Shown piece by piece: positions 1-2,556 of a stretch of DNA of 5,923 nucleotides. Location of the stretch: positions 1-5,923 of the forward strand of contig JAQWFV010000046.1 in assembly GCA_029238555.1 (NCBI GenBank), read 5' to 3'. Source of the DNA: Flavobacteriaceae bacterium. Lineage in GTDB: Bacteria > Bacteroidota > Bacteroidia > Flavobacteriales > Flavobacteriaceae. How positions within the stretch are numbered: the stretch's first letter is position 1; each line of letters opens with the position of its first letter. A program made the position numbers and the translations under genes. Under the pieces are notes generated by a model. It did not search any database. It was not told where the DNA came from and was given only the letters and a program-made list of their open reading frames with translations.

Positions 1-387
1 CGCGGCCGATGGTCCTGAGAACTCTGTCCCAGCAATGGGGTGCGCTGCCAAGTAATTTCTTCTGTTGGGATGGTCTTTAACCGCCTCACACAAGCTGGCC
101 TTTGTGGAACCGGCATCTACTACTACAGTATGTGCAGACACCTGATCCAATACGAGCGGCAACACTTTTAAAGTGGCGTCTACCGGAATAGCTATAAACA
201 CCATATCTGCCTTTGCCACATCTTCTAAACGCCCTATCTCATCTATCACACCCAAGGACAAAGCTTCCTTTAAGTAGTCTTCCTTTTGGTCAATCCCAAT
301 GCGTTTCACCTCAGGATAATGTTCCTTGATGTCTTTAGAAAAAGAACCTCCAATTAAACCAACTCCTATGATACAAACTACTTTCAT
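1..387 (-). CDS. tyrA: Prephenate dehydrogenase, N-terminal 129 residues (cut by window edge)
   Basis: Prephenate dehydrogenase oxidatively decarboxylates prephenate to 4-hydroxyphenylpyruvate with NAD(P)+, the committed step to tyrosine, in the cytoplasm. The visible part is the Rossmann domain: a dinucleotide-binding GVGLIGGS at residues 8-15, an acidic residue at the end of the second strand (D33 in GIDQKE) that favours NAD+ over NADP+, a DAGSTK motif at 91-96, and HPIAGTE at 116-122, whose His116 matches the catalytic histidine of the family. The start is ATG at 387-385, 2 bp after the aminotransferase stop codon, so it is the third gene of the pheA operon. The reading frame is open to base 1 and the C-terminal helical dimerisation domain lies outside. 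In related bacteria a DAHP synthase/chorismate mutase gene often follows, but that cannot be seen here. The identification is firm. No chorismate mutase domain precedes it, unlike enterobacterial TyrA. Confidence 0.95.
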   Translation of the reverse strand, partial: MKVVCIIGVGLIGGSFSKDIKEHYPEVKRIGIDQKEDYLKEALSLGVIDEIGRLEDVAKADMVFIAIPVDATLKVLPLVLDQVSAHTVVVDAGSTKASLCEAVKDHPNRRNYLAAHPIAGTEFSGPSAA

Positions 388-389
388 AC

Positions 390-1538
390 TTAATTCTTCA
401 CGCGTTCAATAGCTTCTTTTATTATCGTTTTGTCTACACAAAGAGAAAAACGAACATAGCCTGCTCCGCCAGCTCCAAAAATGGTTCCTGGGGTAATAAA
501 TAAATCTTTTTCATGTAACAATGCCTCTATAAAAGCTTCTGCATCTGTTAGGCCCTCTGGTAATTTAGCCCACACAAATAAGCCCACCGCCTTTGGATCG
601 TAAGTACAGCCTAAAGCGTCTGCCAACTCATAGGTGAGTGCCCTTCGCTCCTCATATACTTTATTAAGTGCTGTATACCAATCGTCAGCAACTTCCAATG
701 CCGCTATGGCTCCCTTTTGTACCGGATAAAACATCCCGGAATCCATATTACTCTTCACCTTCAGCACCGCATTAATAATGGCTTCGTCTCCCAACACCAT
801 TCCTACACGCCAGCCAGCCATATTAAACGTCTTACTCAAAGAATTTAACTCCAATACATGTCCTTTAGCGCCTGGAATGGATAAGATACTCTGAGGCGCC
901 TTGTTTAAAATAAAACTATAAGGGTTGTCATTGACCAAAAGAATATCGTGCTTTTTGGCAAAGGCCACCAATTCGGTAAGTGCTGCTACAGAAGCTACTG
1001 CTCCAGTAGGCATATGAGGGTAAGACAGCCACATGAGTTTCACCTGAGTGAGGTCTAACTGCTCCAAAGCGGCTATATCTGGCAACCAATTGTGCTCAAT
1101 AGAAAGCCTGTAAGGAATGACCTTAGCGCCTACCAAATCAGATACTGACTGATAGGTAGGGTATCCTGGATCTGGAATTAGCACTCCATCTCCTGGGTTT
1201 AAAAAGGCCATACTAATGTGCATGATCCCTTCTTTTGAACCCATCAATGGCAAAATCTCTGTGGCTGCGTCTAAAGAAACACCAAACTGTCTTTTATAAA
1301 AAGACGCCATAGCTTCTCTGAGCTCGGGCAGTCCCTGATAGGACTGATACTGGTGGGCATTCTCCGCGGCCGTGGCAGCTATTAAAGCCTGGGTAACCTT
1401 AGGATCAGGTGCCAAGTCTGGACTCCCAATGCCCATATTAATAATAGGTTTTCCCGCTGCCATTAGGCCCCTAACCTCTCTTAACTTTCTAGAGAAGTAG
1501 TATTCTTGTACCGTATTTAAACGTGTGGCTGTTTTCAT
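390..1538 (-). CDS. PLP-dependent class I aminotransferase of the aromatic operon
   Basis: This 382-residue fold-type I aminotransferase probably transfers an amino group to phenylpyruvate and/or 4-hydroxyphenylpyruvate, or to prephenate itself. The position between pheA and tyrA suggests this role; the sequence alone does not fix the substrate. Visible landmarks are GIGSPDL (36-42), GYPTY (125-129), the cofactor-contacting Asp204 and Tyr207 in VNDNPY, the Schiff-base Lys236 in SLSKTFNMAGWR (233-244) with the phosphate-binding Arg244, and Arg363 in YVRFSLC, which should bind the substrate alpha-carboxylate. Length is normal for the family. The usual NNPTG motif reads HMPTG (175-179), so the near-invariant Asn beside the PLP ring is Met. 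The ATG overlaps the pheA stop in an ATGA arrangement, indicating translational coupling. An LL-diaminopimelate or aspartate aminotransferase label is possible by similarity, but the operon favours aromatic substrates. The stop is TAA at 392-390. Confidence 0.9.
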   Translation of the reverse strand: MKTATRLNTVQEYYFSRKLREVRGLMAAGKPIINMGIGSPDLAPDPKVTQALIAATAAENAHQYQSYQGLPELREAMASFYKRQFGVSLDAATEILPLMGSKEGIMHISMAFLNPGDGVLIPDPGYPTYQSVSDLVGAKVIPYRLSIEHNWLPDIAALEQLDLTQVKLMWLSYPHMPTGAVASVAALTELVAFAKKHDILLVNDNPYSFILNKAPQSILSIPGAKGHVLELNSLSKTFNMAGWRVGMVLGDEAIINAVLKVKSNMDSGMFYPVQKGAIAALEVADDWYTALNKVYEERRALTYELADALGCTYDPKAVGLFVWAKLPEGLTDAEAFIEALLHEKDLFITPGTIFGAGGAGYVRFSLCVDKTIIKEAIERVKN

Positions 1539-2371
1539 AATTCTCTAGCATTTGTATATTCTCCCAATACCCTAAACTCCGTAGCCATTATTTCTAAAAT
1601 AGCCCTTGCTTTGGTATAGTCTTCATACTGATCAAAAGTAACGTCTACAAAAAAAGCGTACTTCCATGGAAGGTCTATTACTGGAAGTGATTGTATTTTT
1701 GTTAAATTTAAATGGCAGTCACTCATCACATTGAGCACAGCAGCCAAACTGCCCCTTTTGTGATCTAACACGAAACGAAGCGATGCTTTATTAATACGCT
1801 CTTGAGGAATTTCCTTAGAGGTGGTTTTCACTATAATAAAACGGGTGGCATTGTTTTTAATGGTCTGTATGTCAGAAGCCAAGACTTCTAGGCCATACAA
1901 TCCAGCAGCAACTTTAGGTGCTATAGCCGCAATGCCTTTTAGCTGACCAGATTGAATACGCTGCGCAGTTTCAGCAGTATCTACATCTTCTACCAATTGA
2001 ATGTGCGGGTGCTTTTTAAAAAACTCATGACACTGCAATAGGGCCATAGGATGGGAATGTACCGCCTTAATATCTTCCATCCTTTGCCCCGCTAGGGCCA
2101 TAAGGTGGTGGTGAATATTTAAGTAATACTCTCCAATAATATGTAAATGATGGTTATACACCAAAGCGTAGTTTGGAATAATAGAACCCGCAATGGAATT
2201 TTCAATAGCCATAATGCCCTTATCTGCACGCCCCTCCATAAGTTCCTGAACCAATGCCGGAAAAGACATACAAGGAAGCATCTCCTGGTCTGAACCATAA
2301 CAATCTATGGCCACCTGATGGTGGTTAGATCCCTTTATGCCTTGAATGGCTATTGTCATTTTTTCTTTCAT
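1535..2371 (-). CDS. pheA: Prephenate dehydratase, monofunctional, with C-terminal ACT domain
   Basis: Prephenate dehydratase decarboxylates and dehydrates prephenate to phenylpyruvate, the committed step to phenylalanine. The 278 residues form a catalytic PDT domain (about 5-183) and a regulatory ACT domain (about 196-275). No chorismate mutase domain is fused, unlike E. coli PheA. Diagnostic motifs are AIQGIKGSNHH at the N-terminus (8-18), AIENSIAGSI (55-64) and NATRF (174-178), which contains the catalytic Thr-Arg-Phe. In the ACT domain the classic GALV and ESRP phenylalanine-binding motifs read GSLA (207-210) and QSLP (227-230), so feedback binding may differ from the textbook enzyme. The start could be ATG at 2371 or the Met at 2359, which gives MTIAIQG and has a purine-rich AAAGAAAAA in front; the longer form is listed. 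It is the first structural gene of the operon, directly downstream of an attenuator, and overlaps the aminotransferase gene by 4 bp. Identity is firm; the start is uncertain by four codons. Confidence 0.95.
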   Translation of the reverse strand: MKEKMTIAIQGIKGSNHHQVAIDCYGSDQEMLPCMSFPALVQELMEGRADKGIMAIENSIAGSIIPNYALVYNHHLHIIGEYYLNIHHHLMALAGQRMEDIKAVHSHPMALLQCHEFFKKHPHIQLVEDVDTAETAQRIQSGQLKGIAAIAPKVAAGLYGLEVLASDIQTIKNNATRFIIVKTTSKEIPQERINKASLRFVLDHKRGSLAAVLNVMSDCHLNLTKIQSLPVIDLPWKYAFFVDVTFDQYEDYTKARAILEIMATEFRVLGEYTNAREL

Positions 2372-2379
2372 TTTTAATC

Positions 2380-2409
2380 AAAAAAAAATCCCGCAACAGC
2401 GGGACTCTT
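2380..2409 (-). terminator. Intrinsic terminator of the pheA attenuator (3:4 hairpin)
   Basis: On the minus strand, TCCCGC (2404-2399) and GCGGGA (2394-2389) form a perfect 6-bp GC-rich stem closed by the loop TGTT, followed at once by nine T (2388-2380). AAGAG before the stem can pair with the first five T by A-U and G-U, extending it to 11 bp. The T-tract ends 8 bp before the pheA ATG at 2371, so a transcript ending here would carry only the leader and no structural gene. Its 5' arm is shared with an alternative pairing farther upstream, which is the hallmark of an attenuator rather than a simple end-of-gene terminator. The sequence is seen directly; termination itself is inferred. Confidence 0.88.
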
Positions 2410-2448
2410 AATAAGGTATATCGTTCACAATATCCTAGAAAAGCCCCG
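2400..2448 (-). promoter_or_regulatory. Antiterminator pairing (2:3) competing with the terminator
   Basis: On the minus strand CGGGGCTTTT (2448-2439) can pair with AAGAGTCCCG (2409-2400) over 10 consecutive bp, eight Watson-Crick and two G-U. The second arm contains most of the terminator's 5' arm, so the two helices exclude each other. The first arm lies within the last codons of the leader peptide (Thr-Gly-Leu-Phe), and the leader stop codon TAG follows at 2437-2435. A ribosome finishing the leader would cover the first arm and let the terminator form. A ribosome stalled on the upstream Phe/Tyr codons would leave it free and permit readthrough into pheA. The pairing is worked out by hand; the mechanism is inferred from the phe, his and trp attenuators. 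Confidence 0.8.
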
Positions 2449-2509
2449 TACTTCTATTAAAATAGAAGTAGAAGTAAAAACGGTTCCAGAAATTTGTGCT
2501 AAGTGTCAT
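2435..2509 (-). CDS. Phe/Tyr-rich leader peptide of the pheA operon (pheL-like)
   Basis: A 24-codon reading frame starts at ATG 2509-2507 and ends with TAG at 2437-2435. It begins MTLSTNFWNR, continues with an unbroken FYFYFYF at residues 11-17, and ends NRSTGLF. Ten of 24 residues are aromatic (6 Phe, 3 Tyr, 1 Trp), which is far from chance and resembles the Phe-rich PheL peptide upstream of E. coli pheA. Here Phe and Tyr alternate, matching an operon whose products make both amino acids. No strong Shine-Dalgarno is visible; the start is preceded by the A-rich GTAAAAGAAAAT, as is common in Bacteroidota. The role is presumably in being translated: stalling for charged tRNA-Phe or tRNA-Tyr would favour the antiterminator and raise expression of pheA, the aminotransferase and tyrA. 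The name is by analogy of function, not by sequence homology to enterobacterial PheL. Confidence 0.87.
   Translation of the reverse strand: MTLSTNFWNRFYFYFYFNRSTGLF
2449..2470 (-). promoter_or_regulatory. 1:2 (pause-type) hairpin over the Phe/Tyr codons
   Basis: On the minus strand TACTTCTATT (2470-2461) and AATAGAAGTA (2458-2449) are perfect inverted repeats of 10 bp around TT; sterically this is about 9 bp with a 4-nt loop. The left arm encodes Tyr-Phe-Tyr of the leader run, and the right arm ends exactly where the antiterminator arm starts. GAAGTA can instead pair with the first of two tandem TACTTC copies, with the following CGG meeting an upstream CCG across a four-U bulge, and that form would occupy part of the antiterminator arm. 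Likely roles are polymerase pausing to synchronise the first ribosome and protecting against antitermination. The repeat is seen directly; the role is inferred. Confidence 0.75.
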
Positions 2510-2527: not shown

Positions 2528-2556
2528 CTAATGTAATTATTATATTTAAAACACAA
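2528..2556 (-). promoter_or_regulatory. Candidate Bacteroidota-type promoter for the pheA operon
   Basis: On the minus strand TTG (2556-2554) is followed after 18 bp by TACATTAG (2535-2528). This matches the Bacteroidota -33 TTG and -7 TAnnTTTG pattern at all positions but one. Transcription would start around 2520-2525, leaving a 5' untranslated stretch of only about 12-16 nt before the leader ATG. An overlapping alternative -7, TAGCTTTT (2531-2524), also matches all but one position but with longer spacing. The AT-rich background makes chance matches likely, so support comes mainly from the position just upstream of the leader. Confidence 0.5.

What the first reader, a model, noticed from the sequence alone, without database searches (positions are those of the whole stretch)
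2435..2509. Unannotated 24-residue leader peptide with an alternating FYFYFYF run upstream of pheA
Seen directly: ATG to TAG, 10 of 24 residues aromatic, seven consecutive alternating Phe/Tyr codons (TTT TAC TTC TAC TTC TAT TTT). It lies just upstream of an operon that makes both Phe and Tyr. The established parallel is E. coli PheL, which is Phe-rich. A leader that interleaves Phe and Tyr codons would sense either charged tRNA with one peptide. The gene is too short for standard gene callers and is probably missing from annotation. Whether this peptide is already described for flavobacteria I cannot tell.
Basis: partly seen in the sequence, partly recalled or inferred. Interest (0 to 1): 0.88.

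Follow-up and report, generated by a model that had tools for sequence, protein, structure and literature searches.

The report
Phe/Tyr leader-peptide attenuator in Bacteroidota
In front of its phenylalanine and tyrosine synthesis genes this bacterium has a tiny gene full of phenylalanine and tyrosine codons followed by an RNA hairpin switch, and nearly all relatives sampled here keep both, so a stalling ribosome most likely controls the genes.

Summary
On the minus strand, 2509-2435, lies a 24-codon ORF, MTLSTNFWNRFYFYFYFNRSTGLF, followed by an intrinsic terminator (2409-2384) just before pheA-aminotransferase-tyrA; the nearest named relative continues into DAHP synthase/chorismate mutase. 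Relatives show a classical ribosome-mediated attenuator. The Phe/Tyr-rich frame is present in 78 of 79 named loci with upstream sequence, and at the operon head in all 57 sampled genomes with this PheA type, including 3 where the operon is rearranged and the leader precedes DAHP synthase. An antiterminator strand starts 7-11 nt after the Phe/Tyr run in 116 of 129 loci (10% in shuffles) and covaries with the terminator arm. In the run, Phe and Tyr codons replace each other (21 inferred changes) more often than they become anything else (5), so selection acts on 'Phe or Tyr'. Precedents exist (C. glutamicum aroR, Phe-Tyr-Phe; E. coli thrL, two amino acids), so the kind is known. Not found described in my searches: its breadth in Bacteroidota (Flavobacteriaceae to Hymenobacter), tandem copies, and a second copy before DAHP synthase-aroB-aroA. 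Translation and response to Tyr are inferred, not shown.

The parts
2528..2535 (-). Promoter-like TACATTAG, 26 nt upstream of the leader ATG, with TTG at 2556-2554 at about -33
   Evidence: TAnnTTnG within 80 nt upstream of the leader ATG in 112 of 129 loci against 402 of 2580 shuffles; the strict published TAnnTTTG in 33 of 129 against 218 of 2580. The loosened form was chosen after looking at the sequences. TAnnTTTG and TTTG as Bacteroidetes motifs: PMC7366714, passage.
2435..2509 (-). Leader ORF, 24 codons plus TAG: MTLSTNFWNRFYFYFYFNRSTGLF
   Evidence: counterpart in 78 of 79 named loci
2459..2479 (-). Control-codon run Phe-Tyr-Phe-Tyr-Phe-Tyr-Phe
2449..2470 (-). Hairpin of the end of the run with the following codons (TACTTCTATT/AATAGAAGTA), possible 1:2 or pause hairpin
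   Evidence: Part of the MFE fold; a 7-bp version pairs in 92.9% of cells in 42 sequences but is weakly supported (9 to 123 of 500 shuffles reach the five measures)
2439..2448 (-). Antiterminator 5' strand CGGGGCTTTT, inside the last leader codons
   Evidence: 10 of 10 pairs (three G-U) with 2409-2400, read from the sequence; relatives
2400..2409 (-). Shared strand AAGAGTCCCG: terminator 5' arm and antiterminator 3' strand
2380..2409 (-). Intrinsic terminator: hairpin 2409-2384 as called, T-run 2388-2380
   Evidence: 2 terminator-like sites in 701 bases, 0.4 expected; hairpin plus T-run after the leader in 131 of 135 loci
1535..2371 (-). pheA, prephenate dehydratase, first gene controlled
   Evidence: PF00800 1.2e-57
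390..1538 (-). Class I/II aminotransferase, overlaps the pheA stop
   Evidence: PF00155; downstream of pheA in 79 of 79 loci with enough sequence
1..387 (-). tyrA, prephenate dehydrogenase, cut by the window end
   Evidence: PF02153; downstream of pheA in 79 of 79 loci; L001 continues with DAHP synthase/chorismate mutase

Best explanation
A classical ribosome-mediated transcription attenuator that reads Phe and Tyr codons. A promoter just upstream starts a transcript on which a ribosome translates the 24-codon leader behind RNA polymerase. With charged tRNA-Phe and tRNA-Tyr the ribosome runs through FYFYFYF to the stop codon and covers CGGGGCUUUU (2448-2439); AAGAGUCCCG (2409-2400) is then free to form the terminator hairpin and transcription ends before pheA. 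If either tRNA is short of charge the ribosome stalls in the run, far enough upstream to leave CGGGGCUUUU free; that strand captures AAGAGUCCCG, the terminator cannot form, and pheA-aminotransferase-tyrA (and, in relatives, DAHP synthase/chorismate mutase) is transcribed. Shown here: anatomy, conservation, two mutually exclusive covarying helices, codon-level selection for Phe or Tyr. Inferred: that the leader is translated, the footprint size, the kinetics, and that Tyr as well as Phe starvation relieves termination.
For: Leader before pheA in 78 of 79 named loci; at the operon head in 57 of 57 genomes with this PheA type, 3 of them before DAHP synthase in a rearranged operon. Terminator in 131 of 135 loci; the 4 without it are the 4 without a leader beside pheA. 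Antiterminator strand 7-11 nt after the run in 116 of 129, against 671 of 6450 shuffled regions; mean duplex energy -11.3 against -5.7 kcal/mol. Covariation on 42 sequences: antiterminator 5 of 7 pairs, terminator 6 of 8 pairs changed on both sides. Run columns: 28 synonymous, 21 Phe<->Tyr, 5 Phe/Tyr to other, 5 other to Phe/Tyr; at least one Tyr codon in 129 of 129 cores, at least two in 128. The leader RNA folds better than 200 of 200 shuffles. metF, the upstream gene, is the neighbour in only 6 of 74 loci, so the hairpin is not just its terminator.
Against: No data on translation, transcript ends or response. In C. glutamicum aroR the Tyr codon reportedly does not matter. The antiterminator is individually no better than 5% of shuffles in 27 of 129 loci, 19 of them Flavobacterium-type with short arms. 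Swapping antiterminator strands between loci discriminates poorly: a median 17% of foreign strands pair as well or better, and only 36 of 90 loci beat 90% of foreign strands. Folding without a ribosome gives antiterminator in 98 of 129 loci, so a protector helix is not evident. L068 (Gelidibacter) has the operon without leader or terminator.
Confidence: 0.82

Rival explanations
1. The attenuator is real but senses Phe only; Tyr codons are tolerated fillers, as reported for C. glutamicum aroR.
For: Review passage on aroR (PMC11802643); Phe codons outnumber Tyr 685 to 375 in the cores.
Against: Tyr columns change to Phe, hardly to anything else: column 13 has 5 Tyr-to-Phe and no other amino-acid change, column 11 has 7 Phe<->Tyr and 3 others. 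No leader of 129 lacks Tyr. The operon makes both amino acids.
Confidence: 0.2
2. The run is conserved as RNA (a pyrimidine-rich arm or pause hairpin), and the reading frame is incidental.
For: The end of the run pairs with the next codons in the window and in 92.9% of cells of 42 sequences.
Against: 28 synonymous and 21 Phe<->Tyr changes against one Phe-to-Ser in the run, although Phe-to-Ser and Phe-to-Leu are transitions that would keep a pyrimidine tract. Frame, start and stop are kept in leaders of very different sequence.
Confidence: 0.03
3. The small ORF encodes a working small peptide (membrane peptide, or a nascent chain that arrests the ribosome by its own sequence), and the hairpin is an ordinary terminator.
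For: Aromatic, partly conserved N-terminus YFWNGF in one clade.
Against: Length (16 to 40 codons) and both ends differ between clades; the conserved C-terminal GL of one clade is coded by the antiterminator strand. The antiterminator keeps its distance to the run, not to the stop codon.
Confidence: 0.04
4. The hairpin simply ends the upstream transcript and the Phe/Tyr frame is chance in AT-rich sequence.
For: (TWY)7 is common genome-wide.
Against: The upstream gene differs (metF in 6 of 74); 131 of 135 against 11% in shuffles; leader and terminator come and go together.
Confidence: 0.01

Closest known systems
E. coli pheL-pheA attenuator
   Same: Short Phe-rich leader, terminator before pheA, control by charged tRNA (review passage, PMC11802643; passages of PMC9291695).
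   Different: Here Tyr codons are interleaved and selected; the operon also holds an aminotransferase, tyrA and, in relatives, DAHP synthase; no Rfam leader family reaches its threshold. That E. coli PheL has no Tyr codons is recalled.
C. glutamicum aroR leader (Phe-Tyr-Phe) before aroF
   Same: Mixed Phe/Tyr codons; controls a DAHP synthase gene by attenuation (PMC11802643, passage; Neshat et al. 2014 cited there, not read).
   Different: Actinobacterium; three codons rather than a run of seven; reported not to respond to Tyr. No sequence comparison was made here.
E. coli thrL leader
   Same: One peptide with codons of two amino acids sets the response (PMC9291695 passage; title of Lynn et al. 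1987 in the reference list of PMC7041290).
   Different: Thr and Ile, thr operon; no sequence comparison was made.
Bacteroid-trp RNA (Rfam RF01692)
   Same: A Bacteroidetes cis-regulatory candidate listed by Weinberg et al. 2010 (PMC2864571, table row); that it is a Trp leader is recalled.
   Different: Other amino acid; no match to it in the window at E <= 5 or in 20 loci at the gathering score.

Membership tests
Ribosome-mediated (classical) attenuators of amino-acid operons | Short leader ORF upstream of the first structural gene | tested here: met
   78 of 79 named loci; 57 of 57 genomes at the operon head
Ribosome-mediated (classical) attenuators of amino-acid operons | Run of codons for the amino acid(s) that the operon makes, kept by selection at codon level | tested here: met
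Ribosome-mediated (classical) attenuators of amino-acid operons | Intrinsic terminator between leader and first gene | tested here: met
Ribosome-mediated (classical) attenuators of amino-acid operons | Antiterminator exclusive with the terminator, free when the ribosome is in the run and covered when it is at the stop codon | tested here: met
   (computed; the stop-codon result follows largely from geometry)
Ribosome-mediated (classical) attenuators of amino-acid operons | Protector (1:2) hairpin that sequesters the antiterminator strand without translation | tested here: inconclusive
   Weak covariation; antiterminator still favoured without ribosome in 98 of 129 loci
Ribosome-mediated (classical) attenuators of amino-acid operons | Leader is translated and readthrough rises when the tRNA is uncharged | not testable with these tools
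   Needs footprints and reporter assays
Rfam leader families (Leu_leader RF00512 and any other leader family) | Covariance-model score at or above the gathering score | tested here: not met
   Window: Leu_leader 25.6 bits, gathering 50, no other family at the leader up to E 5; 20 loci: only two Flavo-1 matches, far from the leader
T-box riboswitch | T-box covariance-model match upstream of the operon | tested here: not met
   No T-box family in the window at E <= 5 nor in 20 loci at the gathering score

The most novel reading that the evidence does not exclude
One leader peptide measures charged tRNA-Phe and tRNA-Tyr together, with Trp codons as a third input in many species, as the single switch of the whole aromatic branch (DAHP synthase, PheA, TyrA). 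It is an ancestral device of the Bacteroidota groups with this operon, follows the operon head through rearrangements, was doubled in tandem in Hymenobacter and copied to DAHP synthase-aroB-aroA, and implies that ribosome and RNA polymerase are closely coupled in a phylum said to initiate translation largely without Shine-Dalgarno pairing (recalled).
Probability: 0.5. Interest if true: 0.68.

Novelty: new member of a known kind. Interest (0 to 1): 0.5.

Why it matters
Attenuation works only if a ribosome follows RNA polymerase closely. A deeply conserved attenuator in Bacteroidota is therefore comparative evidence for such coupling in a phylum where leader-peptide control is little described: Naville and Gautheret 2010 knew of none outside Proteobacteria and Actinobacteria before adding Firmicutes (PMC2965389, passage). 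It also offers a ready reporter of Phe/Tyr supply in laboratory Flavobacterium, a natural series of Phe/Tyr codon swaps to test which tRNA is read, and a family for which no Rfam model reached its threshold here.

Tried and rejected
Rarity of the run itself: rejected as evidence. Swap test of antiterminator strands: weak. Pairing of the Phe-Trp-Asn codons with the last leader codons as a 1:2 helix: fits the window, but by eye on alignment A2 it breaks where codon 23 is TTG, so it is not claimed. Covariance model R1 in 24 genomes: of the weaker places I read 13 (L185-L197, chosen from a capped list); 12 showed no Phe/Tyr leader and look like ordinary terminators or chance, one is the second leader of L001's genome. 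Stretches upstream of 20 other DAHP synthase genes in the 57 genomes (L229-L248; one, L238, lies inside a pheA operon): none has a frame with 6 or more aromatic residues in 8; three have 5 in 8 within frames of about 49-58 codons and were not examined further. Genomes with only distant PheA: no leader in 33 of 33 pheA loci read, out of 158 such genomes, nor upstream of 30 of 30 DAHP synthase loci read from 30 such genomes searched, 23 of them with a match. Viral contigs: nothing.

Rows dropped before counts: L041 (cut at the contig end); L081 (same locus as L001) and L082 (paralogue); L058 and L123 (the script chose another ORF; their leaders and terminators were read by eye); L027, L046, L066, L117 and identical sequences before the covariation alignment. 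One search kept all 46 rows, including those four, which are misaligned there. The structures counted were read from these same sequences, which favours them. Loci are related to each other, so counts of loci are not independent.

Full report
What is there. The finding gives 2435-2509 without a strand. On the minus strand this is an ATG-to-TAG frame of 24 codons, MTLSTNFWNRFYFYFYFNRSTGLF, with ten aromatic residues and seven consecutive Phe/Tyr codons at 2479-2459. An intrinsic terminator is called at 2409-2384; its T-run ends at 2380 and the pheA ATG begins at 2371. pheA (PF00800), a class I/II aminotransferase (PF00155) and tyrA (PF02153, cut by the window end) follow on the same strand. The nearest named relative, L001 (PheA 95% identical, titled Flavobacteriaceae bacterium), continues with a DAHP synthase/chorismate mutase. 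Upstream on the same strand are metF and metH.

The run by itself proves little. Seven Phe/Tyr codons in a row are absent from 200 shuffles of the window, but 20 related genomes hold 2 to 119 matches each, 576 against 620 for the reversed pattern. The evidence is comparative.

Conservation. A scan with an alignment of 16 PheA sequences kept 80 named loci, the cap, nearly all titled Flavobacteriaceae or its genera. Of the 79 with upstream sequence, 78 carry a Phe/Tyr-rich short frame that ends 59 to 180 nt before the PheA match, e.g. MTKTYFWNGFYFYFFFKRGTGLF (L019), MLQNVWQGFYFYFYFFSKRRDFVSYC (Tenacibaculum, L065), MSNNRFYFSNSFYFFFSRSEDCAMVI (Flavobacterium, L080). L068 (Gelidibacter) has none. 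Of these 57, 54 have the leader directly before pheA (53, plus L001's own locus). The other three (L108-L110) have pheA behind a gene that reads like aroA, with leader and terminator before the DAHP synthase that heads that longer operon (aroB and aroA there read by eye). So 57 of 57 have it at the operon head. A DAHP synthase lies within 8 kb downstream of pheA on the same strand in 54 of 57 and upstream in those three. Among the 158 genomes with only distant PheA I read 33 pheA loci and saw no leader. In 135 loci, 131 have at least 5 aromatic residues in 8, against 297 of 2700 shuffles. L121 is Hymenobacter by its PheA (92% to Hymenobacter lucidus; Cytophagales), so the element reaches beyond Flavobacteriaceae.

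RNA anatomy. A hairpin with T-run follows the leader in 131 of 135 loci, starting 15 to 53 nt after the stop codon; the four without are the four without a leader beside pheA. The best complement of the terminator 5' arm between run and terminator has mean energy -11.3 against -5.7 kcal/mol in shuffles. It is individually strong (at most 10 of 200 shuffles as good) in 102 of 129; of the other 27, 19 are Flavobacterium-type leaders with short arms. It starts 7-11 nt after the end of the run in 116 of 129, against 671 of 6450 shuffled regions, while its place relative to the stop codon ranges from 34 nt before to 14 nt after. In the window it is CGGGGCTTTT, inside the last leader codons, pairing 10 of 10 with AAGAGTCCCG. 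On 42 aligned sequences the antiterminator has 96.9% paired cells and 5 of 7 pairs changed on both sides, with no shuffle of 500 reaching any of the five measures. The terminator has 100% and 6 of 8; four measures are reached by no shuffle and the fifth by 17 of 500. One strand thus covaries with two partners. Relatedness inflates such tests. The hairpin of the run itself is only weakly supported, and a test swapping strands between loci was weak.

Geometry. I folded RNA that ends before the terminator 3' arm, with everything up to 13 nt from the first base of the A-site codon hidden by a ribosome. The antiterminator then forms with the last run codon in the A site in 129 of 129 loci, and with the stop codon in the A site in 0 of 129. 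In the window its probability falls below one half at codon 19 or 20, two or three codons beyond the run, for footprints of 11 to 15 nt. With no ribosome it would still form in 98 of 129, so what happens without translation is open.

Codon-level selection. In 46 leaders of 23 codons, parsimony on a pheA tree gives for the seven run columns 28 synonymous, 21 Phe<->Tyr, 5 Phe/Tyr-to-other and 5 other-to-Phe/Tyr changes. From the code alone, with transitions twice as frequent, I would expect Phe<->Tyr to be about a tenth of amino-acid changes (my arithmetic). Column 7 exchanges Trp with Phe or Tyr seven times, though this takes two base changes. All 129 cores hold Tyr, 128 at least two; 685 Phe, 375 Tyr and 55 Trp codons in all. 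This favours reading of both tRNAs, perhaps of Trp too, over Phe alone. It is not a functional test.

Start of the transcript. TAnnTTnG occurs within 80 nt upstream of the leader ATG in 112 of 129 loci, 90 of them 26-40 nt upstream, against 402 of 2580 shuffles; the strict TAnnTTTG in 33 of 129 against 218 of 2580. The looser form was chosen after seeing the sequences. The window has TACATTAG at 2535-2528.

Extras. L121, L123 and L124 show two leader-plus-terminator units in tandem before pheA; I did not look for tandems systematically. L001's genome has a second Phe/Tyr leader, MNRFTTEYFYFFYFFEKAK, with terminator and a possible antiterminator, before DAHP synthase/chorismate mutase, 3-dehydroquinate synthase and EPSP synthase genes. 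No such frame was found before 20 other DAHP synthase genes, at 6 aromatic residues in 8.

What is known. C. glutamicum aroR is a leader with Phe-Tyr-Phe before a DAHP synthase; the review says that it responds to Phe limitation and not to Tyr (PMC11802643, passage). E. coli thrL relates to Thr and Ile (PMC9291695, passage; PMC7041290, passages and a reference title). For Bacteroidetes I saw the name Bacteroid-trp in a table (PMC2864571) and a remark on sORFs reminiscent of attenuation leaders in B. thetaiotaomicron (PMC7366714, passage). PMC4833913 (passages) counts leader genes in Bacteroidetes but does not contain the words pheA, phenylalanine or tyrosine. Ten library searches listed no paper that, by title and abstract start, describes this leader. 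The library lacks most subscription journals, and Lopatovskaya et al. 2010 was not held, so I do not claim that it is unpublished. The kind is known; breadth and the mixed, codon-selected run are the news. Neither translation nor regulation has been measured here.

Noticed in passing
L121, L123, L124, up to 420 nt upstream of the PheA match: Two Phe/Tyr leaders in tandem, each with its own terminator, before pheA (L121 is Hymenobacter by its PheA).
   Followed up: partly
L194 and L228 (genome of L001), leader at L194:521-643 minus strand: Second Phe/Tyr leader plus terminator before DAHP synthase/chorismate mutase, aroB and aroA genes, beside a second DAHP synthase and a short PheA paralogue.
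   Followed up: yes
L172-L174 (genomes of L108-L110): Rearranged operon: leader before DAHP synthase, with pheA further downstream behind an aroA-like gene.
   Followed up: yes
Leader codon 8 in the window (2488-2486), column 7 in the 23-codon relatives: A Trp codon before the run that exchanges with Phe and Tyr codons across relatives although two base changes are needed; possible third input or part of an RNA helix.
   Followed up: partly
L068, 260 nt upstream of pheA (Gelidibacter): Operon without leader or terminator; the upstream region instead carries repeated blocks with GC-rich hairpins lacking T-runs.
   Followed up: no
L063:5112-5189 and L080:5178-5255: Flavo-1 RNA (RF01705) about 1.3 to 1.4 kb downstream of the pheA match in two Flavobacterium-type loci.
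   Followed up: no
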